NCBI GenBank assembly: GCA_017470145.1
Contig: JAFUFB010000013.1
Span: forward strand, 102,483 to 166,482
DNA: 64,000 nucleotides
Source: Clostridia bacterium
Lineage (GTDB): Bacteria > Bacillota > Clostridia > Christensenellales > Aristaeellaceae
Reading direction: 5' to 3'
In this document: positions 49,078 through 63,876 of the stretch, piece after piece
How the letters are laid out: each line of letters begins with the position of its first letter
Numbering within the stretch: position 1 is the first letter of the stretch
Position numbers and translations under genes: made by a program
Notes under the pieces: model-generated
The model's input: only the letters and a program-made list of their open reading frames with translations
Told to the model about the DNA's origin: nothing
The model's database searches: none

Positions 49078-50259
49078 TCATCCCATAATCATCTTTACGA
49101 TTCTCTCTCGCAGTTGATCTGCCTGCAAGTCCTCCAGATCGATCATCTGGATATTCAGATCCGCCGCCCGATGGCGAGCTGCGGAACCAGCCGGTTCCGC
49201 GCTGACGATTGCCGCCTGCGCAATTTTCCCGCCGAATCGATCCCGCAGCACCGCCAGCTCATTGATGGCTTCCGTCCGAACGGCGCATGTCTTACAGCTG
49301 ATGAACAGCGGCACAATACCTCTCGTAGCCATCACGTCCAGCTCATTGCTGACCTTGCCCGTTTTTTCACTGGCGTCCCAGTCCACCACCGCGCTGGTAT
49401 GTACATCGTCGAACAGCCCCGTATCCAGACAAGCCTTGTATGTTTTCAGCTCCAGCACGCTTCCCACGTCCCGCAGCCAAGCCCGGATTTGCGCATCCTT
49501 AAACTTGAATTGGACCTTCTCTTCAGGAATGATCTCCAGGGAGCTGATCAGCCCGATCTTTTCCATCTCCCGCAGCGCGTCCTCCGGCGCGGCCAATTGG
49601 GCGCCCCGCTCCCCCTTCACGGCGTAGCTGGATGCCACCTGCAGGGTAAAGTTTCCCTCTCGATCCGCCGCGGATGCTCGCTGCATCCAGATGACAATAT
49701 GATCCCAGGATGTCCGGTGCCTCATATACAGGTCAAAAAAAGGATCCACCATCGGCAGATATTTCTGCAGAATAGCGTTATCGACTCTTCCCTTGCGCAT
49801 GGTTCCTCCGGCCATCAGGAAGGTGTCCTCCACAGTGAAGGAGATATCGCAATTCAGTTTTTCCGCGAATTCTGCGTTCCGGATATTGTAGAACCGATTC
49901 ATCCGCCGGCTGTAGGTGATGACCGGGATGTTCATCTCTCCACAAACCAGCCCCGCGGCGAAAAGCACAGCGTCCGTTCCGCCGGTGATGTCCATTACGC
50001 TGTCCGGATATTGTTGAATTAGCCCACGGAAGGCCTCCGCCAGCTTCTCCGTGTCATAAATATCCACATACACGAAGCCCATCTTCGTCTGGATGCCCCG
50101 ATGCGCAAAATAATCCCTGAGCTGTTTCCGGATTTGCTCCTGATCTCCTTCTCCTTCGGCGCAGATGTAGATAACCCGCTCCGGGTGCCCGACTTCCACT
50201 CCGAGCACGTTCTCTAAAGGCCGCTCATCATACAGCTCAATTAGCGTTGTGATGTCCAT
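49078..50259 (-). CDS. CARF-domain nuclease of the DUF1887 family (Card1-like)
   Basis: 393 residues. The N-terminal CARF (Rossmann-like) domain has VYVDIYDTEKLAE and the ligand loop VMDITGGTDAVLFAAG; members bind cyclic oligoadenylates. A winged-helix linker follows (about 200-270). The C-terminal PD-(D/E)xK nuclease (about 290-360) shows LELKTYKAC, NELDVMATRG and LFISCKTC. The usual E-x-K is S-C-K here. In Card1/Can2 proteins ligand binding triggers cleavage of nucleic acid. No CRISPR array or Cas10 is in the window. The start is ATG at 50259, seven bases after GGGAGGG, two bases after the phosphatase stop. Confidence 0.85.
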   Translation of the reverse strand: MDITTLIELYDERPLENVLGVEVGHPERVIYICAEGEGDQEQIRKQLRDYFAHRGIQTKMGFVYVDIYDTEKLAEAFRGLIQQYPDSVMDITGGTDAVLFAAGLVCGEMNIPVITYSRRMNRFYNIRNAEFAEKLNCDISFTVEDTFLMAGGTMRKGRVDNAILQKYLPMVDPFFDLYMRHRTSWDHIVIWMQRASAADREGNFTLQVASSYAVKGERGAQLAAPEDALREMEKIGLISSLEIIPEEKVQFKFKDAQIRAWLRDVGSVLELKTYKACLDTGLFDDVHTSAVVDWDASEKTGKVSNELDVMATRGIVPLFISCKTCAVRTEAINELAVLRDRFGGKIAQAAIVSAEPAGSAARHRAADLNIQMIDLEDLQADQLRERIVKMIMG

Positions 50260-50261
50260 TC

Positions 50262-50741
50262 TCATTCCCTCCCGGACCGATTTCCCTGCTCCCGCAGCCA
50301 TGCCAATAGCCCCTCGCATCCTTCTTCGATCTGGCGGATGGTCCCCCGAAAGTCCCGCGTATACCAGGGATCATCAATTTCCTGCCCAGCCTCCCCGGCC
50401 CAATCCATCAGCAGGGACAGCTTCCCTTCTGGGTCGCCACCGTAAATGCGTCGCATGTCCATCATGTTCTCGCTATCCATGCCGATGATGTAATCCCAGG
50501 CATTGTAATCGGCCCGGGTCGTCTGTCGTGCCGCGTGAGGGTGACAAATATAGCCCGCAGCCTGCAGGGTCTTCTTCATCGGCGGGTAAATATCGTTCCC
50601 GATTTCTTCCCGGGTTGCGGCCGCCGAAGCGACGCGATATCGTCCCCCCTCCGGCCGTTCCTCCAGCTTCTGCCGCAGAATCATTTCCGCTGCCGCGCTC
50701 CGGCAGATGTTGCCGTGGCAGATAAATAAAATCCTGATCAC
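50262..50741 (-). CDS. Low-molecular-weight protein-tyrosine phosphatase
   Basis: About 159 residues with the LMW-PTP signature: P-loop CHGNICRSAAAE (C-x5-R) at the N-terminus, GMDSENMMDM, and the acid-loop DDPWYTRDF. The likely start is GTG at 50741 (V/MIRILFICHGN). An ATG 48 bases earlier would add 16 residues absent from the family and would run into the 10-bp tandem repeat at 50,771. Translation of the CARF nuclease is probably coupled to it. Confidence 0.9.
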   Translation of the reverse strand: MIRILFICHGNICRSAAAEMILRQKLEERPEGGRYRVASAAATREEIGNDIYPPMKKTLQAAGYICHPHAARQTTRADYNAWDYIIGMDSENMMDMRRIYGGDPEGKLSLLMDWAGEAGQEIDDPWYTRDFRGTIRQIEEGCEGLLAWLREQGNRSGRE

Positions 50742-50770
50742 TGTCTTGTCCTGCCTTCTGATGCCCGAAG

Positions 50771-50876
50771 ATGCCGCATTATGCCGCATTTCCGGGGATG
50801 TCTAATCTGGTCATATATTTCTGGGTGATTTTTCATGCGCGGCAAAACGCGGCAAAACGGGGCAAATCGCGGCAGC
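50771..50876. repeat. 10-bp iterons at the integrase end of the mobile element
   Basis: ATGCCGCATT occurs twice in tandem (50771-50790). On the other strand sense, CGCGGCAAAA-type units repeat about 3.5 times with exact 10-bp period (50838-50876). The shared GCGGCA core is inverted between the two groups. The one-turn spacing and place next to the integrase suggest integrase arm-type binding sites near the element end. Confidence 0.5.
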
Positions 50877-51043: not shown

Positions 51044-52327
51044 TTAACCTGCCCTGAACTGGTTCTTCGAAATCTTCACTTCGTCTGTTTTACCGTTCAG
51101 CTTTTCCTGCTCCTTCCGGGCGTTCTCCACATCTTGCATCCGGCTCATTTCCTCTACTGCATCCTCCAGCCCAAGGTGGGTATAGGTGTTCATCGTCACG
51201 CTGATGTCGCTGTGGCCCATCAGGTACTGCAGCGTCTTCGGGTACATGCCTGCCTTCGCCTGCAGGCTGCAGTAAGTGTGGCGGCATACGTGAGGCGTAA
51301 TGTTCGGCATCTGCTCCCGGAAGATCTCGTTGTACCGGTGCACCATGTGATTGAAGCGGTGTTCCCAGTGCATAGCCACCTCTGGCATCCCGTTGTCATC
51401 CAGAAACAAGAATCCGCTGTGACCGTCAATGATCTTCTCAACCTCCGGAGCCTCCCGTGCCTTCAGAATCCTCCTGAAGCACTCTGTCACATCATCATTC
51501 ATCGGCAGCTTCCGGGTGCCTGCGTTCGTCTTGGTCTTCTCAATCACATACTTCATGTCGCTGGTGCGCTGGAGCTGGTGATCGATGTTGAGAATCCTGT
51601 TCTTCAGGTCAACATCCCGGATGGTCAGTCCGCAGAACTCAGAAATCCGGATCCCGGTGTGGAACAGGATGTAAACCACGTCGTAGTACTTGCAGTAACA
51701 GTTGTCATCATGGATGAACTTCAGGAATTTGTTCATCTGCTTTTTCGTAATCGCTTCTCTTGTCACGGAATCATTCACCACCACTCCTGCTAATGCGAAC
51801 CCGAAGGGGTTCTTGTTCAATGCGTCATCGTCCACCGCCATCTGGAAGGCAGGCCGGAGCACCCCGCGCACCGTCTTGATGGTGCTATGCCCCTTCCCAT
51901 CGTTCTGCAGTTTGATCAGAAACAGCTTCGCGTCAGAAGTCTTCACGTCACCGATCTTCCATCCGCTGAAATCCTCCTTTTCCAGCAGGTTCTTCACAAA
52001 TTTGTAGTTGGTCATCGTATTGGGCCGCATGCCGGTCTTGGTGGAAAGATACTTTTCCACTAGTTCCATCACGCTCATTTTCTTCTGCGTCGGATCCATC
52101 CTGTGCTCCAGGTCGTATCCGATCTTCTTTTCCAGCTCCCGAAGGGAAAGACAGGGGCGTTTTCCCGCAGGCAGCTTATCAGTCGGTTCCAGCTTCCAGC
52201 TGTACACAAACTTCGGTTTCCCGTTTACCAGGTATTTGAACTGGTATTTTCCGTCAGCCCGGATACTTTCGCCACTTCGCAGAACTCTTCGCTTGGAATC
52301 GCGTCTTCTTTGTTGGTTCTCTGACAT
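51044..52327 (-). CDS. int: Tyrosine recombinase / integrase, Tn916 type
   Basis: 427 residues. N-terminal arm-binding domain (about 25-75), core-binding SAM-like domain (about 80-180), and a C-terminal catalytic domain with Arg in HTGIRISEFCGL, Lys in KTNAGTRKLPM, H-x-x-R in TPHVCRHTYCS, His in LMGHSDISV and the nucleophile Tyr in MNTYTHLG. It integrates and excises the element. The ATG at 52327 has AAGGAGAGG eight bases before and lies 103 bases inside the preceding gene, an unusually long overlap. Confidence 0.95.
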   Translation of the reverse strand: MSENQQRRRDSKRRVLRSGESIRADGKYQFKYLVNGKPKFVYSWKLEPTDKLPAGKRPCLSLRELEKKIGYDLEHRMDPTQKKMSVMELVEKYLSTKTGMRPNTMTNYKFVKNLLEKEDFSGWKIGDVKTSDAKLFLIKLQNDGKGHSTIKTVRGVLRPAFQMAVDDDALNKNPFGFALAGVVVNDSVTREAITKKQMNKFLKFIHDDNCYCKYYDVVYILFHTGIRISEFCGLTIRDVDLKNRILNIDHQLQRTSDMKYVIEKTKTNAGTRKLPMNDDVTECFRRILKAREAPEVEKIIDGHSGFLFLDDNGMPEVAMHWEHRFNHMVHRYNEIFREQMPNITPHVCRHTYCSLQAKAGMYPKTLQYLMGHSDISVTMNTYTHLGLEDAVEEMSRMQDVENARKEQEKLNGKTDEVKISKNQFRAG

Positions 52328-52908: not shown

Positions 52909-52934
52909 AAAAAAGCCGGGGTGACATGCCCCGG
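52909..52934 (-). terminator. Intrinsic terminator downstream of the ATP-grasp genes
   Basis: Stem CCGGGG / CCCCGG (52916-52921, 52929-52934), seven-base loop, then on the minus strand TTTTTT. It separates the cargo operon from the xis-int genes. Confidence 0.85.
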
Positions 52935-52968: not shown

Positions 52969-53802
52969 TCAAATTCTATTCTGCATGGCATTAACAGTAT
53001 TATGCCAGAGAATTAATGGATTTACACCAACATAACCGCTTTCTTGTGCATCATTTACTTCTATGATAATCCATTCACCTTCTGCTGTTTTCGCAACGTC
53101 AATAGCTGGAAATGAGACTCCAAGTTTTTCAGCAGCCCAGTCTGTCAGCTTGAGCACTTTAGATAATTCTGTTTCTGGCAGGGCATATCGTTGCCCTATA
53201 TTCCAGTAAGGTCCATATGCCATGCATTTTCCTTCAAAATAAAAAAAACGAAACTCATAGCTGATCGGAACCTGATCTGGAAATGACTCGGAATCAATTA
53301 TCTGTAACGGTATGAACTCCCTAACCGCTACTTTTTGCCATGAGAGGATAGGGTCTCGTTTCCATTCTTTCTGCAGATTAAGATATTGAACAGCATTTTC
53401 TATAATGCATTGTGACCGTTTGTGCCGGTTTGTTTGCCTATTCCCTTTAATGAAAACTGGAAATGAAAAATCGTTAAGTATTTCCGTCACATCGGGGAGT
53501 TCCTCATACACTTTTGTGAATGGTGTCTTTTCTTGTAAGATTGGATACCATTTTTCAATCGTACTACATCTTAGATGCTCACCCTGATGAACAAGTAGCT
53601 TCATTCCATGTTCTTCCAATGCCTCTTCTATACCTGTATAATCCTCAATAGCCCCAATATGCAGAAGAACAGGAGCGTTTACATCAGAAACAACAGATTT
53701 ACATTCAAAGTTGTTTCTGAAATCAAAATCGTAAGCACCATCTCCTGTGCTCCGATTTAGGACGGCGATGTTTCCAATCGTGAAGAAATCATCATATTTC
53801 AT
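52969..53802 (-). CDS. ATP-grasp protein A (R2K_3/DUF4343-like)
   Basis: 277 residues. The C-terminal two thirds look like an ATP-grasp fold: FPVFIKGNRQTNRHKRS (first ATP-binding Lys), VAVREFIPLQ (hinge), ISYEFRFFYFEGK, AIDVAKTAEGEWIIIEVND (metal-binding Glu-x-Asn). The pattern resembles the R2K clade formerly called DUF4343, found in phages and mobile elements with unknown amide- or ester-ligase substrates. GAGG before the ATG. It lies 24 bases after ATP-grasp B, so the two may form one enzyme pair. Confidence 0.75.
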   Translation of the reverse strand: MKYDDFFTIGNIAVLNRSTGDGAYDFDFRNNFECKSVVSDVNAPVLLHIGAIEDYTGIEEALEEHGMKLLVHQGEHLRCSTIEKWYPILQEKTPFTKVYEELPDVTEILNDFSFPVFIKGNRQTNRHKRSQCIIENAVQYLNLQKEWKRDPILSWQKVAVREFIPLQIIDSESFPDQVPISYEFRFFYFEGKCMAYGPYWNIGQRYALPETELSKVLKLTDWAAEKLGVSFPAIDVAKTAEGEWIIIEVNDAQESGYVGVNPLILWHNTVNAMQNRI

Positions 53803-53826
53803 TAGCGCCTCACTATCAATTTCAAT

Positions 53827-54579
53827 TCAAATCACGAACTGATCCATTGAATATGGATCAGGCACATCCATCAGCTCTGCCCATCGAGTTGCGAGAAATC
53901 TCGCATAAACGCTCGGCTCTAAACCATATGCTCCAATCGAATAGCCATCATTCAATTCGAGAAAAACTGTCCGCCGGTCATCTGTCACAGCAAAGTCAAG
54001 AGCACATGCAGCAGGGTGTTCTTTCCATTTTGCAAATGAAGCTACGGCTTCATCTATTAACTCAGTGTCCACATAATAGTGATAGTCCCCATGGTAATGT
54101 CTGATATCAAGGATTGAATCATTGCGTACAAAAACACGATATTCACTCCGAATATCAATCAGTTCACTGCAATAAACCTTTTGATTTAATGGGATATTGA
54201 TGAGTGAAGCCCAATCATGCGGTGCCAAGATTACTCTACCAGTAAATTGTTTCTCTTGAACAGGCTTTACGAACAAGGCGAGTGAACCGTTTTTGCGAAG
54301 ATTTCCGATAGTATCTAACCAGATTTTTCTTCCTGCAAATGGCAACAAAGAATCAGGATAATCCGTAGTGGTTTTTATAACTTCGTATTTCTCAAAGACC
54401 ATCCTCGATTGCGACACACCATCAACAACGATATCATCCCGTGTAATCCAATGCAAAGCATCATGAATCTTTTCATATTTTTCTATATCAGCGCCTAGTG
54501 ATTTAAAGCCAAATGCAGCAGTTGCAACGTTCACACTTGCGTAATCGCCATCCGCCATTGTCCTGCACCATACACGCAT
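53827..54579 (-). CDS. ATP-grasp protein B (R2K_3/DUF4343-like)
   Basis: 250 residues related in layout to its neighbour. LALFVKPVQEKQFTGRV gives the ATP Lys, YCSELIDIRSEYRVFV the hinge and Arg, and CALDFAVTDDRRTVFLELND the metal-binding end, then GYSIGAYGLEPSVYARFL. The N-terminal 80 residues differ from those of protein A. The start is uncertain: ATG at 54579 has a poor site; an ATG seven codons later has AGGA. Two linked ATP-grasp genes suggest a two-step ligation. Confidence 0.72.
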   Translation of the reverse strand: MRVWCRTMADGDYASVNVATAAFGFKSLGADIEKYEKIHDALHWITRDDIVVDGVSQSRMVFEKYEVIKTTTDYPDSLLPFAGRKIWLDTIGNLRKNGSLALFVKPVQEKQFTGRVILAPHDWASLINIPLNQKVYCSELIDIRSEYRVFVRNDSILDIRHYHGDYHYYVDTELIDEAVASFAKWKEHPAACALDFAVTDDRRTVFLELNDGYSIGAYGLEPSVYARFLATRWAELMDVPDPYSMDQFVI

Positions 54580-54617
54580 ATAACAACATCACCGCCCATC
54601 CCATCTCTGTCACACAT

Positions 54618-56099
54618 TTAGGCATCTCTTATCTGTTCTCTGACTTCCATCAAAGCAAAGCCCAGCAGATTCTTCCCCCGCCATTTACTGATATCCTTGC
54701 GTTCATCATCATCCAGATGCCACCCGCAAGCCCAATTCAGGTCTTTATATGCACATTCCACAAGGAAGGCGTCATCTGTTTCCAGAAGCTGTTTCTTCAG
54801 TTCTTCATTCTGAGAGAACTTCGCATAAAGGCCCCGTGCTGCAACCATTTGCCGCATTCCATGCCAGAGAGCATCGTTATAGCCTTTCGCATTTTGTCCC
54901 AGATTCTGTTGTTCCGCAGGCGTGTCTGCTGCAAGAATCGCTTCTGCAGTCTCATCATCCCCGAGAAGCTTTGCCTTCCTGTACATGATGTACTGTTCAT
55001 TGGAGTTGAATTCTATTCCGTCCAGCACAAAATCAGACATGTACCAGTTGCTTAAGAAACCATATGGCTCCTCTGGCAAATGGAAATAGATCGCCGAAAC
55101 AGTCCTGCCTTCAATGGTCAGGCTATCAAATTGCTTCTGTTTCTGAATAGCGATTAACGTCTCTTCGAGCCATTCATGGTAATAATCATACTTTGGCTGT
55201 GTCCACCAGTCCAACAGCATGTTAAGGTTCTTTTCGTCTCCTGCGGTGTCTGTGCAGCCATACTGCTCGGTAAATCTGTTTACTGTAACCAGATGCTCCT
55301 TTTTGCCTGGATTCATCTGCAGAATGTAGATGCAGTATCCCGTCCAGCTCCGATGCGCATATAACGTATTCCCTTCGCAGTACCAGAACCACTTGTCCTC
55401 CATCTCCTGTGGAATATTGCCCATTTTGAGAACGGCCACATCCGCTTCTGAAAGCATTCTGTGCAGGATGAACGAATCATGCTCTTCCGGCATGTCTACC
55501 GTCTGCCAATCCGCCTTCACCGCAAGAACCGTTTTCTCTGTTGGTTCTGGCCGCTCCAGCACAATTACCTTTTCATCTTCTGGAGCGATGCTGTGCAGCA
55601 TATCCCGTCCCATGAACAGGGTTTCATCATCCAGTACAGCAAAGATGATCTCGAGTTCATAATCACTGTTTTTCTGCAGGAAATCGTGACAAGCCTGAAT
55701 GGCCTTCCTCCAGGCTTTATCCTTTGGATATCCGTAGATCCCTGAAGAAATCAGCGGAAACCCGATCGAATGACAGTTATGCTTTCTGGCCAATCGTAGC
55801 GATTCCCGGTAGCAACTGTAAAGCATCTGCGGCTCATTCTGTGTGCCGCCCTGCCATATGGGCCCAACGGCATGAACGACATATTTTGCCTTCAGACGAA
55901 ATCCAGGTGTGATCACCGCAAACCCGGTATCACAATGTCCAATCTGATCACATGCCGCCTGCAGCTCCGTATATCCCGCAGCGCGGAAAATGGCACCGCA
56001 AACACCTCCGCCAGCCTGCAGTCCAGCATTCGCAGCATTCACAATAATATCTGTGTCCAGCTCTGTAATATCAATTGAGCGAATATCAATCGAGCTCAT
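54618..56099 (-). CDS. Macro domain / unknown domain / NADAR fusion protein
   Basis: 493 residues in three parts. Residues 1-175 are a macro domain (VNAANAGLQAGGGVCGAIFRAAG, HAVGPIWQGG, FPLISSGIYGYPKDKA), a fold that binds or removes ADP-ribose. Residues about 180-335 are an unassigned domain with Trp-rich stretches (KWFWYCEGNTLYAHRSWTGY, LDWWTQPKYDYY). Residues about 340-490 are a NADAR (DUF1768) domain (EPYGFLSNWYMSDFVLDG, FNSNEQYIMYRKAKLLGD, WHGMRQMVAARGLYAKF); NADAR enzymes strip ADP-ribose from guanine bases or act on related N-glycosides. AGGAGG precedes the ATG. Confidence 0.88.
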   Translation of the reverse strand: MSSIDIRSIDITELDTDIIVNAANAGLQAGGGVCGAIFRAAGYTELQAACDQIGHCDTGFAVITPGFRLKAKYVVHAVGPIWQGGTQNEPQMLYSCYRESLRLARKHNCHSIGFPLISSGIYGYPKDKAWRKAIQACHDFLQKNSDYELEIIFAVLDDETLFMGRDMLHSIAPEDEKVIVLERPEPTEKTVLAVKADWQTVDMPEEHDSFILHRMLSEADVAVLKMGNIPQEMEDKWFWYCEGNTLYAHRSWTGYCIYILQMNPGKKEHLVTVNRFTEQYGCTDTAGDEKNLNMLLDWWTQPKYDYYHEWLEETLIAIQKQKQFDSLTIEGRTVSAIYFHLPEEPYGFLSNWYMSDFVLDGIEFNSNEQYIMYRKAKLLGDDETAEAILAADTPAEQQNLGQNAKGYNDALWHGMRQMVAARGLYAKFSQNEELKKQLLETDDAFLVECAYKDLNWACGWHLDDDERKDISKWRGKNLLGFALMEVREQIRDA

Positions 56100-56119
56100 C
56101 CCAGACCTCCTGATAGTCT

Positions 56120-56695
56120 TCAGCGTTCCAGCAGAAATGTCGCCGCTTCATCCGCAACATGCACGATCCATGCCAGCGGGAACTGCTGGTAAGCATTGCT
56201 TACATCTCGGACTGTTGTCGCGCTGCCATCAGAGAATCCCATGTGGCAGTTTATGGCTGCCGCTTCCTCGGTGGTCAGCTTTATAAACTGCTGTGCAAGA
56301 AACACCGACTTGGAACCGTGACCTCCAAAGTGGAATTTTTCATCAATCACATAGTACGGAACTTCCTGCCACTCCCCGTTGATCTTCTGGTTCCGTTTAT
56401 CCATCTTATACAGGTTAACCTTGCAGATATCATGCATAAGCGTAGCTATCGCCAGGGACTCTTCGGATGGTGGCGCCGGCATAAGGAACGTCAGTCTCTT
56501 CGCATATTTGTAAACGTCAATAGAATGCTGGCACAGCCCTCCAGGATAAGCGCCATGGTATTTGGTGCTGGCAGGCGCTGAAAAGAAATCTGCCTTACAT
56601 AGCCAATCCAGTAAGCCATCTATTCCTTCTCGCTGAATGCTTGCTTTGCAGATTGTTAAAAATTCCTGCTTTTGAGCTTCAATGTTCAGTTCCAT
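56120..56695 (-). CDS. HD-domain phosphohydrolase
   Basis: 191 residues. Metal motifs of the HD family: YPGGLCQHSIDVYKYAKRL, then LMHDICKVNLY (the HD pair), FGGHGSKSVFL and INCHMGF with VHVADEAAT at the C-terminus. It most resembles 3'-5' exonuclease-like or nucleotidase HD proteins of phage and mobile DNA. It overlaps the next upstream gene by 17 bases and precedes the macro-NADAR gene by 20 bases, so all are in one operon. Confidence 0.82.
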   Translation of the reverse strand: MELNIEAQKQEFLTICKASIQREGIDGLLDWLCKADFFSAPASTKYHGAYPGGLCQHSIDVYKYAKRLTFLMPAPPSEESLAIATLMHDICKVNLYKMDKRNQKINGEWQEVPYYVIDEKFHFGGHGSKSVFLAQQFIKLTTEEAAAINCHMGFSDGSATTVRDVSNAYQQFPLAWIVHVADEAATFLLER

Positions 56696-57023
56696 GTGTT
56701 TTGCCTTTCTCTGGTTCCTCCAGGTAATTCACGTTTTTCCCGGAAGCAATAGCATAATCGATCTCAGATCGAGTACTGCTTCCAATGTATCCGCCCGGAT
56801 TAATCACATAGATTTCATCCGCCATGTCAATTTTAGCGCGGTGCATATCATCCAGCATTTCCTTGGTTCCCGGTGTCCAGACCTCTTCATCGCCCGAATG
56901 CCCAAATAGCCCAACGCTGATGACAATATTCCCTTCCAGAGTCAGACGCTTCTGAGTCTCAATAAAAGCGTCTTTGAAGCGGGTACTTCCGCAAAGAGTG
57001 ATTACCTTATATTTGCCAACCAT
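56679..57023 (-). CDS. Nucleoside 2-deoxyribosyltransferase-like small protein
   Basis: 114 residues with a short Rossmann-like fold: VITLCGSTRFKDAF at the N-terminus, IDMADEIYVINPGGYIG and STRSEIDYAIASGK. These are the marks of the nucleoside deoxyribosyltransferase/DUF4406 group, which cleave or transfer N-glycosidic sugars or bind nucleotides. The start is ATG at 57023 after AAGGA; a TTG six codons earlier lies in that site. The stop overlaps the HD gene. A substrate among nucleotides or NAD-like molecules is inference from neighbours. Confidence 0.75.
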   Translation of the reverse strand: MVGKYKVITLCGSTRFKDAFIETQKRLTLEGNIVISVGLFGHSGDEEVWTPGTKEMLDDMHRAKIDMADEIYVINPGGYIGSSTRSEIDYAIASGKNVNYLEEPEKGKTHGTEH

Positions 57024-57037
57024 GATGTCATCCTTTC

Positions 57038-58081
57038 TCAAGCAGCCTGATCGCCGAAAAACTGTTTTACGATAGCATCCAATTGCTGCCTGATGAGTGT
57101 AAACTCACAGTTCAGATCCAATGTTCGCACCGCAATGGTGTTACCGCTCATCCGATATTCATGGTCGGGATAAATCGTTTCATCCGTCTTGGCATACAGG
57201 AGCATTCCTGAGACCGTATGAGGCTTTTCCCTGAGTTCTGCCTCTTTATTCTTCACATAGGTGAATATCTGGTTCAGGTTGCCGGAATGCACGGTATGGA
57301 CATCAAAGCGTTCCTGCGTCGTATGCGTATAGTATTTGGCATCAATGATCAGAATCCGATCCTGTTGGGACAGCATAATGTCCGTCTGCAGAATTGGAAG
57401 CATATCACTGAATCCATCGTCCAACTGCCATGGAATCTGTGCGGCATTCGCCGAGATTTCTCTGTGTTCTTTACGAAAGTACTCCAAAATGAATTTCTCG
57501 TACAGGCGGCACATCCGTTGCTCATCCAGGAAATCCATCAGGCGAGTTGTTCCATCAGATTGCGTTTGGAGGAGGCCCTTTACCACTAAATAGCAAATCG
57601 AAATGAGCATCCGATAGGTCTGATTATTCCGGTTGTACTGTACATTCCAGTCAATCGTATGAACATTCAAAGGTTCAACATCTCTGAAAAACGCCAGGAT
57701 TCTTCGCAATTCCTTTTTACGGCTGCTTGAGATGTCAGCATGTTGCAGCAACTCCATGGTTGTTTTGATAATTCGGTTCATATAGGAGTTCACCGAAAAA
57801 TCGTCATATGCACAGACCAGCTGTTTACGCTGTATGCTCCTGGTTTTCAGAGATTCTGATATTTCCAGTTTTCCTCGCGGCGTTGAGAGTGCATCGCTCT
57901 TCTCAATATACTCCCGGTTCAATCCTCTTTTTAGCTGGATAGCAGTTCCCTTCACCAGAATGGCAGCGCATAGCTCTGCAACGTTGCCAAATTGCTCTGT
58001 GGCAACGTCCCTGTAGCCCCGCTCATGCAGCACCTGAAAGGCATAAGCAAGCATGTGGTAAACATTCTGAATCGGTATCAC
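57038..58081 (-). CDS. mcrC: McrC-like nuclease subunit of a McrBC type IV restriction system
   Basis: 347 residues. The N-terminal half is the McrC helical/DUF2357-like part that stimulates McrB (NVYHMLAYAFQVL start, YDDFSVNSYMNRIIKTT). The C-terminal half has a PD-(D/E)xK nuclease: DMLPILQTDIMLSQQDRI, then ILIIDAKYYTH (D-x-K), and NLNQIFTYVKNKEAE. The start is GTG at 58081, overlapping the mcrB stop as GTGA. It cuts modified DNA with McrB. Confidence 0.92.
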   Translation of the reverse strand: MIPIQNVYHMLAYAFQVLHERGYRDVATEQFGNVAELCAAILVKGTAIQLKRGLNREYIEKSDALSTPRGKLEISESLKTRSIQRKQLVCAYDDFSVNSYMNRIIKTTMELLQHADISSSRKKELRRILAFFRDVEPLNVHTIDWNVQYNRNNQTYRMLISICYLVVKGLLQTQSDGTTRLMDFLDEQRMCRLYEKFILEYFRKEHREISANAAQIPWQLDDGFSDMLPILQTDIMLSQQDRILIIDAKYYTHTTQERFDVHTVHSGNLNQIFTYVKNKEAELREKPHTVSGMLLYAKTDETIYPDHEYRMSGNTIAVRTLDLNCEFTLIRQQLDAIVKQFFGDQAA

Positions 58082-60237
58082 TTGATCGCGCTCCTCAGAT
58101 TGCTAATCCAGTCCTTGACCTTTAACGGTTCGTCAAACCAGTACTCCTTCAGCAGTGGAATCAATTCAAATTCCACGATACTGTTCAGAGCGCGGTCTGT
58201 CACTTCTTTCAGATTGCAGAAATAGCTATGGCCAATACAGAAGCCTTCACCAAGAGATTCATCTGCGACAATTGCGTTATTCAGGCTTTCAACACACGCA
58301 ATCAGTTTATCGAACTTCTCGCTTCCAAGCCCCATCCTGTACGCACGGAACTGGTCCGCCTCAAAACCTGGTTTAATCTCGAAGAAGCCAAACCTTCTGC
58401 GCAGCGCATAATCCATCATCGCCAGGCTGCGATCCGCTGTATTCATCATGCCGATAATATATACATTCTCAGGAATGGAGAATTTCTCATCGGAGTACAG
58501 AAGCTGAAGCTCAATTCCGCGCTTGTCCGCTTCAATCAGCATGAAGAGTTCGCCGAAAATCTTGCTGAGATTCCCGCGATTGATCTCGTCAATGATGAAA
58601 AAATATTCATTGTCGCTGTCAATCTCGGCAGCTTTGCAGAAGTTGTAAAACGCACCACGTTTTAGTTCAAAACCTTTTTCCGAAGGTCTGAAACCCATGA
58701 TGAAGTCTTCATAGGAATAGCTCTGATGGAACTGGATCATCATAACACGATCGGGATCTTTGACACCCATCATGGAATAAGCAAGTCGTTTTGCCGCGAA
58801 TGTTTTACCGACCCCCGGCGCACCTTGAAGAATAACATTTTTCTTGCTCTTTACCAGTTCAACCAACGTTTCATAGCTTTCCTTATCCATATAGACTTCT
58901 TCCAAAAACTTCTCCGCTGAATAAGGTTTAAGCTCCGTTACCTGTTCCTCGACATCCTCTTCTACTTCGCTTTCAAACAAAGCGCAAAGCTCCGCCACAT
59001 AATCTGTGTATTGCGTGATGTCTGTTAATGTTTTCATGGCAGCCTGGCCGGGATGCGGCCATTCGCCTTTATGAGTCCATGTAACCTTTCGCACATTCTT
59101 GTCTTCAGTGCGAGAATCATCGAATTCATAGTCTGACTGAACAACGCCTCGTCCTATGACAATACTCCGACCTTTTTTTGCAAAAATGATATCGCCCGGT
59201 TTGATATCATTGGCGAATTGCCACGTCGCGTGTGCCGCCATGGTGTACGGTTTGCTTGGGTCAATGTGCTCCTTCATGGCTTCCTTCATTTCCGTTTTGG
59301 AGGAGTACTGACTCAGATCACCGATTCCATCCCAGCCAATGGCCATGATTCCTTTTTTATAACATTCATCCCACAGATGAGCGTTCTCTCCAGGTGAATA
59401 CAGCCAGTAATGAACGGTCTTCACATCATCATCCGCAACCGCAGCGCCTTTTGTTTCCTGCTGATTTTTGGCCTTTAAAGCATTCTGCTTATTCACTTCT
59501 TCTGAGTATCGCCATGCCTCAAAGCTGAGTTCCTTAAAATCTTTCAGGCTGCTGGCATCGCTCTGCAGATACGCCCTTAGTTTCTCAACGATATCAAAAT
59601 ACTTTTCCGCAGGAATCTTCGCTTCAATTTCAGGCAACGTTTTTACAATTTCAGGAGGAATTTTGCCAGACTCATAGATATACCATGTGTTGCGCTGATC
59701 CAAATTCAAGAATGCATCTGGAGCAATCCAATACAAACCCATGGTGATCTTGCTGTTTCCATTGTACTTGATGTTCACAGCCACATCAAAATGCTTTGCA
59801 ACACGAGTTCGGTTATCTGCTGCCGAACTCCCGGCATAAGCCAACGCCGCATCAAACAGCTCCCACAATTCATCAATATCTGACTCTTGCCGTTCCGTAA
59901 TAAAAGGATAGAAGGTTGCGTTCTGTGGATTGAGCACAGGGAGGCTGTCAAATGAGTGCGGTACAGGCGACGAGACGCCAAAAAGATCCGCAACTGAATT
60001 AAGGATTGTTATCCGATTAGCATCTGTCAGTTTTTTGTTGAAGAGGCCAAAAACCGTAAAAGGATCAATGTCCACGATCTGGTTGTCTTTCTCCAATGTG
60101 GGCATTTTGAAACCAGTAATCTCATAGATCTGTTTGACCTTCTCTATGAGTGCCTTACGGTTGGATTTATACTGAAGGAGCTTCTGCGCCAGTTCCATGT
60201 AGAAATCAACCCAATCAAACTGATTTGTGTTGTTCAT
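58078..60237 (-). CDS. mcrB: McrB-like AAA+ GTPase with EVE-like reader domain
   Basis: 719 residues. N-terminal domain of about 270 residues (FDWVDFYMELAQKLLQ, HFDVAVNIKYNGNSKI) of unclear function. Then a PUA/EVE-like domain (about 280-400: VHYWLYSPGENAHLWDECY, GIMAIGWDGIGDLSQY, PGDIIFAKKGRSIVIGRGVV) that in other McrB proteins reads modified bases. The C-terminal AAA+ part has Walker A GAPGVGKT near 473, Walker B YFFIIDEINRGNLSKIFGEL and sensor MMNTADRSLAMMDYALRRRF, all typical of the McrB GTPase. GAGAGGG before the ATG. Confidence 0.92.
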   Translation of the reverse strand: MNNTNQFDWVDFYMELAQKLLQYKSNRKALIEKVKQIYEITGFKMPTLEKDNQIVDIDPFTVFGLFNKKLTDANRITILNSVADLFGVSSPVPHSFDSLPVLNPQNATFYPFITERQESDIDELWELFDAALAYAGSSAADNRTRVAKHFDVAVNIKYNGNSKITMGLYWIAPDAFLNLDQRNTWYIYESGKIPPEIVKTLPEIEAKIPAEKYFDIVEKLRAYLQSDASSLKDFKELSFEAWRYSEEVNKQNALKAKNQQETKGAAVADDDVKTVHYWLYSPGENAHLWDECYKKGIMAIGWDGIGDLSQYSSKTEMKEAMKEHIDPSKPYTMAAHATWQFANDIKPGDIIFAKKGRSIVIGRGVVQSDYEFDDSRTEDKNVRKVTWTHKGEWPHPGQAAMKTLTDITQYTDYVAELCALFESEVEEDVEEQVTELKPYSAEKFLEEVYMDKESYETLVELVKSKKNVILQGAPGVGKTFAAKRLAYSMMGVKDPDRVMMIQFHQSYSYEDFIMGFRPSEKGFELKRGAFYNFCKAAEIDSDNEYFFIIDEINRGNLSKIFGELFMLIEADKRGIELQLLYSDEKFSIPENVYIIGMMNTADRSLAMMDYALRRRFGFFEIKPGFEADQFRAYRMGLGSEKFDKLIACVESLNNAIVADESLGEGFCIGHSYFCNLKEVTDRALNSIVEFELIPLLKEYWFDEPLKVKDWISNLRSAIK

Positions 60238-60252
60238 GTTTGATCCCTCTCC

Positions 60253-60978
60253 TTATTGCATATCGACAATCCGAACAATGACGCCCTTTATCGTACCCGT
60301 TTCTGTTTCGATCTCAACAATATCTCCTACTGAAATATTTGGAGTATCGAAATAAAAATCCTCAGTGCTCCCATTATCTAATCTGGAAACAAGACAATGG
60401 ACATGAGTGGAATTGTGAATGTCTTTAGCAATGGCCTCCTCCGGAATCGCCGTCCAATCTTCAAAATAATCTTCCTGACATTCTTGTTCCATGTTCATGT
60501 CAGATTTTTGCAGCTCCAGTGCTTCGTTATATTCTTCTCTTGTTTCGTAATCCTCCGGATCAATACCATATTGCCATCCAGGTTCGCAATTAAGCCGCCA
60601 TGCATACCGATTGTCATTCATAACGCTATCTGATATGGCGTTTAACAGTGGATCATCACTGACAATGAATTCATCTTCCCTGTCAGACCAGGTTCTCTCG
60701 TTTGGATCCTTTCCGGGAGGGTCGGTTGTTACATTGAAAGAACCCTTCGCTCCAAGATATGCTCCTGTTCGCATTATTTGCCTTGTCGTTTTCATTCGTC
60801 CGGAAGCGATTCCAATAGCTGAAACACGATAAGGATTGATTTTCCCCTTGGCAGAATAATGGTATTTCTTTTCCATGTGGTTTGCCACTGAATTCATCGC
60901 AGCGCCACCAGCCAGATCAATCAATCCGTCCAGAATGCCCAGTCCGAAGGAACTGCTTTTTTTCCGTTTCTTTGCCAT
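60253..60978 (-). CDS. Unknown protein between brxL and mcrB
   Basis: 241 residues. Basic, Gly/Ser-rich N-terminus (MAKKRKKSSSFGLGILDGL, then DLAGGAAMNSVANHMEKKYHY), a middle with many Asp/Glu/Asn, and a C-terminus shaped like a small beta-barrel (VHCLVSRLDNGSTEDFYFD, ISVGDIVEIETETGTIKG). I do not recognise the family. GGAGG precedes the ATG; 33 bases after brxL and 15 before mcrB, so it is in the same operon. A nucleic-acid-binding or adaptor role is only a guess. Confidence 0.75.
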   Translation of the reverse strand: MAKKRKKSSSFGLGILDGLIDLAGGAAMNSVANHMEKKYHYSAKGKINPYRVSAIGIASGRMKTTRQIMRTGAYLGAKGSFNVTTDPPGKDPNERTWSDREDEFIVSDDPLLNAISDSVMNDNRYAWRLNCEPGWQYGIDPEDYETREEYNEALELQKSDMNMEQECQEDYFEDWTAIPEEAIAKDIHNSTHVHCLVSRLDNGSTEDFYFDTPNISVGDIVEIETETGTIKGVIVRIVDMQ

Positions 60979-61011: not shown

Positions 61012-63072
61012 TTATTCCACGCCCAAAGCCTTATAAACAGCATCCTCCGGCGTCTGATAGAAAATCAAATTAAAGCAGCCAATCAGTTCTGCCGGAACAG
61101 TGCTGAGATCTGCAGCAGATGTAATCGGAAGCAGTACTTTCTTGGCTCCACTGTCCAGACACACCTGTAGAGAGTTGGCTAGTTCTTCCACCTTCATTAA
61201 CGTTCCGCTGATACTGATCTCACCCATCACAGCCAGAGAACTCAGCGCAGGTTTCCCCAACGCAATCGAACAGAGCGCAATCAGAGACGGCAGTGCCAGC
61301 TTCCCGGTCATGCCAATCCCCTGAAGATCCTGATAGTTGATGATATAGTCCTTCGTGGTGGTACTGATAGCTCCGCTGATCCTGTTTCCATTTGCTTTCA
61401 GATAGTTGAACGCAGTCATGCTGCTTTCTCTGGAATCACGCTCTGAACCGATCCCGGTTCGGTCAAATTTTCCATTACCCGGCAGCATCTGGCTTTCCAG
61501 TCGGAATAGCCCGATCATCCCGCTCTTGCCCTGACTGACCGTATAGATCTGTCCAGGATTGCTCATGCCTTCCGGGATCAGTTTCCCTCCGCCCTGTTCA
61601 GGCACAGACACAAAGTGCTCCTCAAAGTTATCATTATCGATGTAGCTGAAGTTGACATCATAAAATTCCATGCCACCCAGTTTCTTCAGTTGCTCCTTCA
61701 CGCGACGGCGCATTTCAAGGGCAAGAATCAAAATCTCTTCCAGCTCCTCTTTCGTATACTCACCGTCCGGATAGAGAAGCTTTATGAAACCACCAACCAT
61801 ACGGCGTACTGCGATGGTGTCGCGCTGATTCAGGTTGCGGCCCAGATGGAAATACTGATCCAGTGCATCACCAAACTGTTCCTTACGTAACTCCCTCAGG
61901 AACTCAGCCAGATAGTCCGTGATAAAGCCCCAGTCATTGGTAAAGTGCTCCGGCCTAAACTTCGGGATTTCCCAACCAGGAATATAGCAATGCATACGAT
62001 CCAGGAAAGCTGTGTCGGTGCCCATTTCTGGTGGGAACGGGTCAAACAGACTACTGGTTTTGAGCAGCACATCCACGCTTTGATTGATGTTTCCGACAAA
62101 AACCATAGAAGCGGACGCAGCTTTTTCCTCTTTGCCACGAGCAAAAGAACCGGATGCCATGTAGTCTTTCATGATCTGGATGCCATCTTTATCCTTAAAA
62201 TTAATACCGGCAACTTCATCGAAGGCCACGACATCCCACAAACCTACCAGACCAACCTGCTTACGTGCCATGTTATAAAACAGGTTAGCCACTGTCGTTT
62301 GTCCGCCTGAAACCAGGATACTGTTTGGCGAGATTTCCTTATACAGATGACTCTTACCAGTTGATCGGGGTCCGAGTTCACAGAGGTTAAAATTGTTCTC
62401 CACAAGCGGAATCATACGGGCTAACAGTAGCCATTTCTCGCGAGACTTCAGCGAATCTGGTTCCATTCCGATAGATCGCAGAAGAACATCCATCCATTCA
62501 TCCTTTGTGAAGGCTTTTCGCCCTGATTTCAGTTCATCAATGTCCACATGGGGCATTTGAATGGGTGTCAATTTCCGGATCTTGATAGGTGAATCGTGCT
62601 TCTCTTCTTCGTTATAATCATATTCCAACTGTACAATACACCAGATACCGCCACAGAGCAGCCTGTCAAACTTCTCAGGATATTCTTCACTGATAGGTAA
62701 CCCTTTCAGCCCGAGATTTGAAAATTCTGCCATATAGGTATCTTTTCTGACATCCAGCTGAACCGTGATTTTATCGATGACCGTATAGCTTCCCTTCTGA
62801 CGGAGCATGGAAAGAATCTTCTGCGCCTCATCCGGACGTACGAAGTTGTCTGCCAGAATATGCTTTACATTCTGAACACCACGCTCAATAATGGCTTCAT
62901 CATCAGAAGAACAGTACTGGCCTAGCAGAAACTCAAGAACATAGACCGGAACATTCGCACCTTCTTTGATCTTCTTTGTAAGATCTTTCCGGACAATTTT
63001 CCCATCAAAGCACTGACGAAGCTTCTCTTTTATGGTTTCCCTAGTATCTACCATGGATTCATTCTCAGTCAT
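61012..63072 (-). CDS. brxL: BREX protein BrxL (Lon-like AAA+)
   Basis: 686 residues. An N-terminal DNA-binding part (about 1-200) precedes an AAA+ domain with NLCELGPRSTGKSHLYKE as Walker A (about 235-250), VVAFDEVAGINFKDKDG as Walker B and FVGNINQSVDVLL as sensor. The C-terminal part is Lon-like (LQGIGMTGKLALPSL, AVMGEISISGTLMKVEELA, CLDSGAKKVLLP). The Lon Ser of DGPSAG is not conserved, in line with BrxL being an MCM-like DNA-binding ATPase rather than a protease. The ATG at 63072 has GGAGG seven bases before. It normally closes a BREX type 1 operon after pglZ. Confidence 0.93.
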   Translation of the reverse strand: MTENESMVDTRETIKEKLRQCFDGKIVRKDLTKKIKEGANVPVYVLEFLLGQYCSSDDEAIIERGVQNVKHILADNFVRPDEAQKILSMLRQKGSYTVIDKITVQLDVRKDTYMAEFSNLGLKGLPISEEYPEKFDRLLCGGIWCIVQLEYDYNEEEKHDSPIKIRKLTPIQMPHVDIDELKSGRKAFTKDEWMDVLLRSIGMEPDSLKSREKWLLLARMIPLVENNFNLCELGPRSTGKSHLYKEISPNSILVSGGQTTVANLFYNMARKQVGLVGLWDVVAFDEVAGINFKDKDGIQIMKDYMASGSFARGKEEKAASASMVFVGNINQSVDVLLKTSSLFDPFPPEMGTDTAFLDRMHCYIPGWEIPKFRPEHFTNDWGFITDYLAEFLRELRKEQFGDALDQYFHLGRNLNQRDTIAVRRMVGGFIKLLYPDGEYTKEELEEILILALEMRRRVKEQLKKLGGMEFYDVNFSYIDNDNFEEHFVSVPEQGGGKLIPEGMSNPGQIYTVSQGKSGMIGLFRLESQMLPGNGKFDRTGIGSERDSRESSMTAFNYLKANGNRISGAISTTTKDYIINYQDLQGIGMTGKLALPSLIALCSIALGKPALSSLAVMGEISISGTLMKVEELANSLQVCLDSGAKKVLLPITSAADLSTVPAELIGCFNLIFYQTPEDAVYKALGVE

Positions 63073-63117
63073 TTTCATTCCTCCCCATGTCAGAGCAATG
63101 GTGTTTCATCCAGCATT

Positions 63118-63876
63118 TTATTTGATTGAAGCAAGTACATCTTCAAAGATGGCATAGTTGTGTTTCACACCGTCGTCCAGATCAATGGAAATCATCTGAT
63201 CCGCCAGATGGTGCACCTTTTCCTCGTACTTTAGCAGTTCTGCATCCTGCCCCTGGATCTTGGTCAGCTGTTTCTGCAGGCGGACACGCTCAGAACCGTT
63301 GGCATTATCCACCCGTCTGGTCAGTTCCTCGATGGCTGTACGGTAACGACTCTGCATCTCATGCACATAGTCGGTGCGAACACGAGCGACCGTATCCTTT
63401 GCCCAGCGATGCATATAAACCAGGCACTTGAATCCATTCTTCTTGCCAGAATCGAACATCCAGTAAATAGGGCGCTTCTGATAGATTTTCAGGTGATCCT
63501 TATAGAAGTCGTTGAGGAAATACTGTCGGATCAGATCGCGGGCAGAGCCGCTGCCATTGAGATAGAGGGCGCTGGCGATGTACTTCAGGTTTTCCTCCAG
63601 CATTTCTTCGCCGAAAGCTTTCTTAACCCACTCCACAAACATCGTCACAATGTCGTCGCCGAAATACTCATCGTCCGTGATCGGCAGGATGCCGTCCTTA
63701 TCCGGGAACAGGGATTCATACCGATCCGGTGGCAGATCCACGACAGACAGAAACTCTGCGTTTTTCTCTCGTTCTTCCTGCTTTTCCTTTTCGAGCTGCT
63801 GCACAAACTCCTGCCAATTGCCACCGGCAAACTGCAGCCCGGGTTTCTTCTGACTATACCACAACTTCCACGGAAT
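63118..63876 (-). pseudogene. pglX: 5'-truncated pglX (BREX adenine methyltransferase), C-terminal part only
   Basis: About 250 residues matching the end of PglX/BrxX: PWKLWYSQKKPGLQFAGGN, the segment RPIYWMFDSGKKNGFKCLVY, the coiled-coil ARVRTDYVHEMQSRYR with the following charged helix, and the terminal SIDLDDGVKHNYAIFEDVL. Full PglX is about 1200 residues and carries its methyltransferase motifs far upstream; none are here. An in-frame TAA at 63877-63879 closes the frame just before the homology starts. The frame itself is intact to its stop. It is followed after 45 bases by brxL with no pglZ between. Confidence 0.78.

What the first reader, a model, noticed from the sequence alone, without database searches (positions are those of the whole stretch)
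52969..57023. Five-gene ADP-ribose/nucleotide-themed block in a mobile element: candidate undescribed defence or modification system
Seen directly: five tightly spaced co-oriented genes encode a deoxyribosyltransferase-like protein, an HD hydrolase, a macro-X-NADAR fusion, and two ATP-grasp proteins, ended by a clear terminator and placed between McrBC and the integrase. Known: macro and NADAR domains process ADP-ribose adducts; HD and deoxyribosyltransferase folds act on nucleotides; R2K-type ATP-grasp enzymes occur in phage and mobile DNA. Inference: the set could reverse or build an ADP-ribose-type mark on nucleic acid or protein during phage infection, or be an anti-defence module for ADP-ribosylating toxins. 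No toxin (DarT-like) is visible in the block.
Basis: partly seen in the sequence, partly recalled or inferred. Interest (0 to 1): 0.78.

Follow-up and report, generated by a model that had tools for sequence, protein, structure and literature searches.

The report
Patchwork cargo with unnamed ADP-ribose domain
The five genes do not look like one conserved machine but like separately travelling parts at the end of a bacterial antivirus (BREX-McrBC) operon; the real surprise is an unnamed protein domain inside one of them that in other bacteria keeps being joined to enzymes that act on ADP-ribose, which suggests an overlooked part of that chemistry.

Summary
They end one co-oriented run, PglX(C-term)-BrxL-U241-McrB-McrC-G1..G5 (gaps 39 bp or less), followed by a terminator and a Tn916-type Xis/integrase. 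By tblastn over 204 loci from other sources (partly redundant, some with short flanks) only the two ATP-grasps co-occur: adjacent in one locus, about 8 kb apart in one jumbo phage. That R2K.2-R2K.3 pairing is published. Profiles add a NADAR near G1 in one phage and near an R2K.2 in another. The new element is the middle of the macro-X-NADAR fusion: ~135 aa, consensus EMEDKWFW...HRSWTG, no Pfam match, no significant PDB match. X is fused to macro (both orders), NADAR, ADP-ribosylglycohydrolase and NUDIX, and lies in a (macro)/nucleotidyltransferase-NADAR/NADAR operon. In one scan 34 of 50 X loci have an ADP-ribose hydrolase fused or within 100 bp (macro share inflated by the query); beyond 2 kb there is one hit in 394 kb. 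15 of 50 show no partner. Best reading: G3 is a multi-domain ADP-ribose eraser and X an undescribed ADP-ribose/NAD-network domain. No structure could be predicted; X's chemistry is unknown.

The parts
56679..57023 (-). G1: small protein, nucleoside 2-deoxyribosyltransferase-like (weak); found singly in phages and chromosomes and downstream of BREX/McrBC genes
   Evidence: (PHROG E 0.0079)
56120..56695 (-). G2: single HD-domain phosphohydrolase-like protein
   Evidence: 56 of 181 order genomes, own included, four of them weak; YhaM 9h3f, E 0.0016
54618..56099 (-). G3: macro-X-NADAR fusion
55605..56099 (-). macro domain of G3; loop GGGVCGAIF where solved relatives 1spv and 5cb3 have GGGVDGAIH
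55110..55562 (-). X domain of G3 ('HRSWTG domain'), no Pfam or PHROG match, no significant PDB match
54618..55100 (-). NADAR domain of G3, relative of solved NADAR 8bau and YbiA 2b3w
53827..54579 (-). G4: R2K family 2 ATP-grasp ligase-like; conserved lysines and D...E-x-N-D retained
52969..53802 (-). G5: R2K family 3 ATP-grasp ligase-like; its 68% relative in L088 is preceded by a G4-like gene
52916..52934 (-). intrinsic-terminator-like hairpin after G5
57038..58081 (-). McrC
58078..60237 (-). McrB-like AAA protein
60253..60978 (-). U241, unknown protein between BrxL and McrB
   Evidence: no significant match; no relative in viral contigs
61012..63078 (-). BrxL (BREX Lon-like protease)
63118..63864 (-). 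C-terminal part of a PglX-like BREX-1 methyltransferase, near the contig end
52623..52820 (-). Tn916-type excisionase
51044..52327 (-). Tn916-type tyrosine integrase

Best explanation
The five genes are the cargo end of a BREX-McrBC defence operon in an element with a Tn916-type integrase, assembled from parts that elsewhere are found separately: G1 (a small nucleotide-enzyme-like gene that recurs downstream of BREX/McrBC and in phages), G2 (an HD protein found in many genomes of the order), G3, and the G4-G5 pair of R2K ATP-grasp ligases. G3 most likely removes ADP-ribose adducts: its NADAR domain is expected to release ADP-ribose from guanine bases of DNA or RNA, its macro domain binds or processes another ADP-ribose linkage, and the middle domain X is an undescribed member of the NAD/ADP-ribose network that recognises the ADP-ribosylated substrate or handles a further linkage. 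In the cell it would work as a stand-alone eraser protecting the host or its element from ADP-ribosylating toxins or phage enzymes. The G4-G5 pair probably ligates amino acids or peptides to a protein, as proposed in print for the R2K clade, and may or may not work with G3. Shown here: gene order, domain content, the repeated fusions of X, the lack of co-occurrence of the block in the loci held. Inferred: every enzymatic activity, the single transcript and the protective role.
For: One co-oriented run with gaps of 39 bp or less. No co-occurrence by tblastn except G4+G5 in 204 loci. G4/G5 differ in composition from their neighbours (GC3 0.35/0.32 against 0.46-0.53 for G1-G3). X partners: macro-X-NADAR, macro-X, X-macro, ADP_ribosyl_GH-X; NUDIX-X with a gene annotated ADP-ribosylglycohydrolase two genes upstream (Pfam found no family in that neighbour); an Inositol_P-ADP_ribosyl_GH gene, then NUDIX, then X; X-X / CTP_transf_like-NADAR / NADAR, with a macro gene in L180 only. 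34 of 50 X loci are fused to or within 100 bp of a macro, NADAR or ADP_ribosyl_GH domain; more than 2 kb from X on the same loci there is one such hit in 394 kb. The ADP_ribosyl_GH link (10 of 50) cannot come from the query, which has no such domain. The X tree needs 20 partner changes among seven states. NADAR enzymes reverse guanosine ADP-ribosylation of RNA and, as cited there, of DNA (PMC11833690, passages read).
Against: 15 of 50 X loci show no ADP-ribose partner and stand-alone X has no conserved neighbour (in L050 the contig begins at X, so a partner may be cut off). X is rare: 2 of 299 phylum genomes, own included. The macro share of the 34 is inflated because the query holds macro and NADAR. 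The macro domain of G3 lacks the Asp and His of the canonical loop, so it may bind rather than cleave. No ADP-ribosyltransferase partner was identified in the block; DarT is absent from the held genome, other transferase families were not searched. X has no structure or known homologue. U241 also has a low GC3 (0.39), so the compositional break is not unique to G4/G5. Co-transcription is inferred from spacing only.
Confidence: 0.6

Rival explanations
1. The five genes are one undescribed defence or modification system that builds or reverses an ADP-ribose-type mark.
For: Tight co-oriented spacing; an R2K pair next to an ADP-ribose hydrolase recalls the published R2K.2-ADP-ribosylglycohydrolase-R2K.3 operons (PMC4431377, passages); profiles find a NADAR domain about 0.9 kb from a G1 relative in phage contigs L094/L095 and 5.4 kb from an R2K.2 gene in L204.
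Against: 0 of 54 G3-relative loci hold another block gene; by tblastn only G4+G5 co-occur in 204 loci; compositional break between G3 and G4; G2 relatives stand without block neighbours in the 29 genome loci (1.5 kb flanks or less) and 4 viral loci examined.
Confidence: 0.1
2. G3-G4-G5 is the functional sub-module: an ADP-ribose eraser plus two peptide ligases acting on the same target protein, the macro-X-NADAR protein standing in for the ADP-ribosylglycohydrolase of the published R2K operons; G1 and G2 are bystanders.
For: R2K.2/R2K.3 with an ADP-ribosylglycohydrolase gene between them in certain Firmicutes (PMC4431377, passages); an R2K.2 gene 1.5 kb from an ADP-ribosylglycohydrolase in contigs L208-L210 (identical profile scores, so probably one lineage), with a SIR2-like protein nearby (by eye); X is fused to ADP_ribosyl_GH elsewhere, so the hydrolase types replace each other beside X.
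Against: Of 21 viral R2K loci scanned, 17 show no macro, NADAR, ADP_ribosyl_GH or X hit; none in L088, L113-L117, L119-L123 (NUDIX boxes in L120 only); G4/G5 composition differs from G3.
Confidence: 0.25
3. X is only a structural or nucleic-acid-binding spacer with no ADP-ribose-specific role; its fusions follow from general shuffling in mobile DNA.
For: One X-PDDEXK_4 fusion (L048), X with a Sel1 repeat (L180), stand-alone X without conserved neighbours; macro-NADAR fusions without X exist in L175-L177 (Pfam for L175), so X is dispensable to that pair.
Against: The identified partner domains are mostly ADP-ribose/NAD enzymes of unrelated families, with one hit in 394 kb further away; W, H, R, S and G are invariant in 25 sequences from several phyla.
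Confidence: 0.25

Closest known systems
NADAR ADP-ribosylhydrolases (DarT-NADAR antitoxins, YbiA, T4 NADAR)
   Same: C-terminal domain of G3 is NADAR (Pfam 4.2e-44; solved relatives 8bau, 2b3w)
   Different: Fused behind macro and X; no DarT-like partner gene in the block or the held genome
MacroD/YmdB-type macro domains
   Same: N-terminal domain of G3, Pfam Macro 5e-40; best solved relatives 9w48 (DR_2288), 5cb3 and 1spv (YmdB, name recalled)
   Different: Loop GVCGAIF instead of GVDGAIH
Tandem NADAR/macro proteins of viruses (PMC9503650, passages)
   Same: Macro and NADAR in one chain
   Different: A third unnamed domain between them. Whole G3 matches 685 phage records, none over 80% of its length; X alone matches none; G3 patterns gave no relative in viral contigs
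R2K.2-R2K.3 ATP-grasp pairs, sometimes around an ADP-ribosylglycohydrolase gene (Burroughs et al. 2015, PMC4431377, passages)
   Same: G4 and G5 best match R2K family 2 and 3 and are adjacent; a like pair in L088 (where the G4-like gene scores R2K_2 and the G5-like gene R2K_3 best)
   Different: The neighbouring ADP-ribose enzyme is macro-X-NADAR and lies upstream, not between
BREX type 1 and McrBC islands
   Same: PglX C-term, BrxL, McrB, McrC in one run
   Different: Five extra genes appended at the 3' end; BREX upstream part not held

Membership tests
DarTG / DarT-NADAR toxin-antitoxin | DarT-type ADP-ribosyltransferase gene next to the hydrolase | tested here: not met
   none in the block; no PF14487 match in the own genome, 84% complete
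NADAR family | NADAR domain over the curated cut-off | tested here: met
   151.1 bits against a cut-off of 35.1
NADAR family | removal of ADP-ribose from guanine | not testable with these tools
   needs an in vitro assay
MacroD-type hydrolase | GGGVDGAIH loop with Asp and His (role recalled, no call) | tested here: not met
   GGGVCGAIF in the window; of the 20 macro-X(-NADAR) loci whose loop was readable 19 have GVCG[AY]IF and one (L022) GVDGAIH; the X-macro proteins L042 and L052 have GVDGAIH
R2K clade ATP-grasp | R2K Pfam domain over cut-off in both genes | tested here: met
   G4 145.4 bits (R2K_2), G5 67.7 bits (R2K_3), cut-offs 26.2 and 26.3
R2K clade ATP-grasp | two conserved lysines in the RAGNYA part (definition from PMC4431377; ATP-grasp E-x-N motif recalled) | tested here: inconclusive
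   alignment of 8 members: one lysine and the E-x-N-D block invariant; second lysine clear in the G4 group, not clearly aligned in the G5 group
R2K.2-R2K.3 operon pair | adjacent co-oriented genes of both families | tested here: met
   window, and L088 in the same order
Known domain for X (Pfam, PDB) | a significant match | tested here: not met
   25 members against Pfam up to E 10: 8 scattered single-member matches, best 0.019; PDB profile best E 0.17
BREX type 1 | full gene set (BrxA, BrxB, BrxC, PglX, PglZ, BrxL; set recalled) | tested here: inconclusive
   PglX C-term and BrxL present; contig ends there
   by tblastn only G4+G5 co-occur in 204 loci from other sources, partly redundant and some with short flanks

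The most novel reading that the evidence does not exclude
X is a previously undescribed superfamily of the NAD/ADP-ribose network, a fourth ADP-ribose-processing or -reading fold beside macro, ARH and NADAR, that bacteria repeatedly combine with unrelated ADP-ribose hydrolases, NUDIX and a nucleotidyltransferase-NADAR protein; its conserved H-R-S and acidic/lysine residues form an active or ligand site, and G3 is a three-activity eraser that clears a set of different ADP-ribose linkages in one pass.
Probability: 0.3. Interest if true: 0.8.

Novelty: new variant of a known kind. Interest (0 to 1): 0.52.

Why it matters
If X is an ADP-ribose domain, a hidden part of bacterial ADP-ribose chemistry becomes testable at once: the domain is small, occurs alone in a number of Clostridia and on Streptomyces plasmids, and has clear conserved residues to change. 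It would also give a sequence handle for finding further ADP-ribose erasers and the toxins they answer. The negative part matters as well: tightly packed co-oriented genes at the 3' end of a defence operon can look like a new five-gene system while being separately acquired cargo.

Tried and rejected
One region asked for beyond the contig end does not exist. A passage search in a paper failed on a two-letter term and was repeated with longer terms. Rfam on 48-64 kb: nothing. X in phages by tblastn: none; G3, G4 and U241 patterns in viral contigs: no relative (an alignment of G4 relatives did find 14 loci). Promoter-like sites: 20 found, shuffles 19.7, uninformative. G1 against solved structures: best E 0.33, rejected. 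The 2xp1 (SPT6) match to X at E 0.17-0.22 was rejected. A GC3 value printed for X was out of frame and was replaced. A conserved neighbour for stand-alone X was looked for in 15 loci and not found. Rows not followed: of the plasmid records with X seven were fetched; Methylobacterium (L131) gave no gene that I could assign to the match and was left out of alignment and tree; Tritonibacter and four further Streptomyces records were not read. The X match of L055 holds masked residues and was left out of A1 and A2 but kept in the tree. Considered and rejected: that X is phage-derived (no hits), that the block is a DarT system (no DarT).
Full report
What is there. The five ORFs exist at the stated coordinates on the minus strand, with domain content largely as described: HD, macro plus NADAR, two R2K ATP-grasps. 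G1 is only weakly a deoxyribosyltransferase-like protein (PHROG E 0.0079; no significant Pfam match). A terminator-like hairpin follows G5. The block, however, is the tail of a longer co-oriented run: PglX C-terminus, BrxL, an unknown 241-aa protein, McrB, McrC, G1-G5, with gaps of 39 bp or less throughout. After a 148-bp gap follow a Tn916-type excisionase, a helix-turn-helix protein and a Tn916-type integrase. The contig ends at the window's end, so neither the BREX start nor the far end of the element is visible.

Is it one system? I looked for each gene elsewhere. G3: 54 loci in genome contigs hold none of G1, G2, G4, G5 (several of these contigs are only a few kb long). In 200 genomes of the own family, 159 have some match to G3; the listed ones (the list is cut) are mostly single domains. 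The only other full-length match at the top of that list is G809 (L135/L174), the same contig as L003 in reverse complement, a MAG titled Christensenella sp. UBA1224. Macro-NADAR fusions without X occur in G905, G971 and G937 (L175-L177; Pfam for the first). G2: 56 of 181 order genomes, own included and four of them weak; 29 other loci read with 1.5 kb flanks or less and four viral loci, none with block neighbours. G1: 12 viral loci and 16 of 245 class genomes, own included. It lies one gene behind PglX-BrxL in L091 (the gene between is GmrSD-like), two small genes behind McrBC in L092, and two genes behind BrxL in L187; the other contexts I read were phage-like or plain chromosomal. G4: 1 of 181 order genomes, the own one. 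G5: 3 of 291 class genomes, own included and one weak. R2K_2 and R2K_3 families are rare: 5 of 348 and 4 of 249 phylum genomes, own included. A final tblastn (E 1e-3) over all 204 loci not from the own genome found two or more block genes only as G4+G5: adjacent and in order in L088, and about 8 kb apart in L119 and L212 (an uncultured 485-kb phage, by length and match the same phage twice). These loci are partly redundant and some have only 1.5 kb of flank. Profile searches, which reach further, add a NADAR domain about 0.9 kb from G1 in L094 and L095 (identical over the 3 kb compared), one 5.4 kb from an R2K.2 gene in L204, and an ADP-ribosylglycohydrolase 7 kb from G1 in L092. G4 and G5 also differ in composition (GC3 0.35 and 0.32; G1-G3 0.46-0.53; BrxL, McrB, McrC 0.51-0.54; but U241 is low too, 0.39; GC of window 1-45000 is 0.58). 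The five-gene unit is therefore not supported by the data held, while the G4-G5 pair is.

The G4-G5 pair is known in kind. Burroughs et al. 2015 (PMC4431377, passages read) describe R2K.3 and R2K.2 genes linked in operons of certain Firmicutes and Actinobacteria, in certain Firmicutes around an ADP-ribosylglycohydrolase gene, and propose peptide ligation to proteins in phage-host conflict. In an alignment of eight members one lysine and the E-x-N-D block are invariant. Of 21 viral R2K loci scanned by profile, four have an ADP-ribose domain: NADAR in L204 and ADP_ribosyl_GH in L208-L210, 1.5 kb from the R2K.2 gene (probably one lineage: identical scores); L209 also shows a SIR2-like protein by eye and a second ADP_ribosyl_GH. 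None of macro, NADAR, ADP_ribosyl_GH or X lies near the R2K genes of L088, L113-L117 or L119-L123; L120 has NUDIX boxes.

The new element: domain X. Between macro and NADAR, G3 carries about 135 residues with no Pfam match, no PHROG match and no significant PDB match. In the loci, 50 of 54 hold X. By a six-frame search with profiles built here: 5 macro-X-NADAR, 17 macro-X, 2 X-macro, 8 ADP_ribosyl_GH-X, 2 with an ADP_ribosyl_GH gene 64-67 bp upstream, 1 with one 3.3 kb away, 15 with none. Pfam confirms ADP_ribosyl_GH in the five of these that were scanned with success (L033, L036, L039, L047, L051) and Macro in the two X-macro proteins; of the ten proteins scanned, L028 and L038 had no family and L048 had PDDEXK_4. 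The macro share is inflated because the query holds macro and NADAR; the ADP_ribosyl_GH share is not. More than 2 kb from X on the same loci there is one macro/NADAR/ADP_ribosyl_GH hit in 394 kb; in 46 control loci around G1, G2 and G5 relatives (343 kb) there are the NADAR of L094/L095 and two pieces of one ADP_ribosyl_GH in L092. X is rare in a thin sample of the phylum: 2 of 299 genomes, own included. X alone as tblastn query reached other phyla (7 plasmid records; the Streptomyces ones at only E 5e-3 to 6e-3, but down to 6e-10 with the Paracoccus X as query): a NUDIX-X fusion in Aeromonas with a gene annotated ADP-ribosylglycohydrolase two genes upstream (Pfam found no family in that neighbour); in Rhodobacter an Inositol_P-ADP_ribosyl_GH gene, a NUDIX gene and X in two overlapping frames; stand-alone X in Streptomyces and a 288-aa X protein in Paracoccus. 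In the own family, L178 and L180 hold an X-X protein followed by a CTP_transf_like-NADAR fusion and a NADAR gene; in L180 a macro domain, seen in two frames, lies between. In 25 sequences W, H, R, S and G of the core (consensus EMEDKWFW...L..HRSWTG) are invariant. In Clostridia more is invariant, but the scan selected for EMEDKWFW among other words, so that is partly ascertainment. A quick tree of 63 X domains needs 20 changes among seven partner states (least possible 6, shuffled mean 34.1), 4 for ADP_ribosyl_GH (2 forced by well-supported branches); 32 of 59 inner branches are weak and some distant rows have long branches. X was not found in phage records.

Mechanism. NADAR enzymes reverse guanosine ADP-ribosylation of RNA and, as cited there, of DNA (PMC11833690, passages); G3's NADAR aligns with solved members. 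The macro domain has Cys and Phe where solved relatives have Asp and His, so binding or an altered specificity is as likely as the classical reaction. X is then a substrate-reading or third processing domain. I judge 'G3 is an eraser with an ADP-ribose-network domain X, in composite defence cargo' the best reading (0.6). Whether X itself acts on or reads ADP-ribose as a new superfamily is open (0.3).

Print status. Searches for NADAR with macro domain and ATP-grasp, R2K, NADAR with anti-phage, macro/ADP-ribosylglycohydrolase/NUDIX neighbourhoods, NADAR/macrodomain/BREX, the string HRSWTG (0 papers) and ATP-grasp with ADP-ribosylglycohydrolase gave no description of X in what I saw: passages of PMC9503650, PMC4431377, PMC11833690 and PMC7824862, and for the other papers only the search listings. 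The library holds open-licence papers only, figures and supplements were not seen, and CDD/InterPro were not searched, so X may be known elsewhere under another name.

Noticed in passing
window 49078-50319 (-): A 413-aa protein with a Card1-like endonuclease domain (Pfam 8.1e-8) lies close to the integrase side of the element, next to a low-molecular-weight phosphatase gene at 50262-50789.
   Followed up: partly
window 60253-60978 (-): U241, between BrxL and McrB, has no significant match in Pfam, PADLOC, NCBIfam or PHROGs and no relative in viral contigs.
   Followed up: partly
window 56679-57023; L091 8001-8348; L092 8001-8324; L187 6483-6815: The small G1 gene recurs within zero to two genes behind BREX or McrBC genes in four settings; it may be a standing accessory of such islands.
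   Followed up: partly
L178 5097-8140, L180 418-4862: Gene row of an X-X protein, (macro in L180), a nucleotidyltransferase-like-NADAR fusion and NADAR: a possible NAD/ADP-ribose system of its own.
   Followed up: partly
L209 8709-17457: Viral contig with a SIR2-like protein (by eye), an R2K.2 ATP-grasp and two ADP-ribosylglycohydrolases within 9 kb.
   Followed up: partly
L092 3401-16306: McrBC, G1, a WYL-like and ZorA/ZorB-like proteins (by eye) and an ADP-ribosylglycohydrolase in one stretch.
   Followed up: no
L094 8001-9665: Viral contig with a G1 relative and a NADAR gene within 1.7 kb.
   Followed up: no
L048 127-1065: X fused to a PD-(D/E)XK nuclease domain.
   Followed up: no
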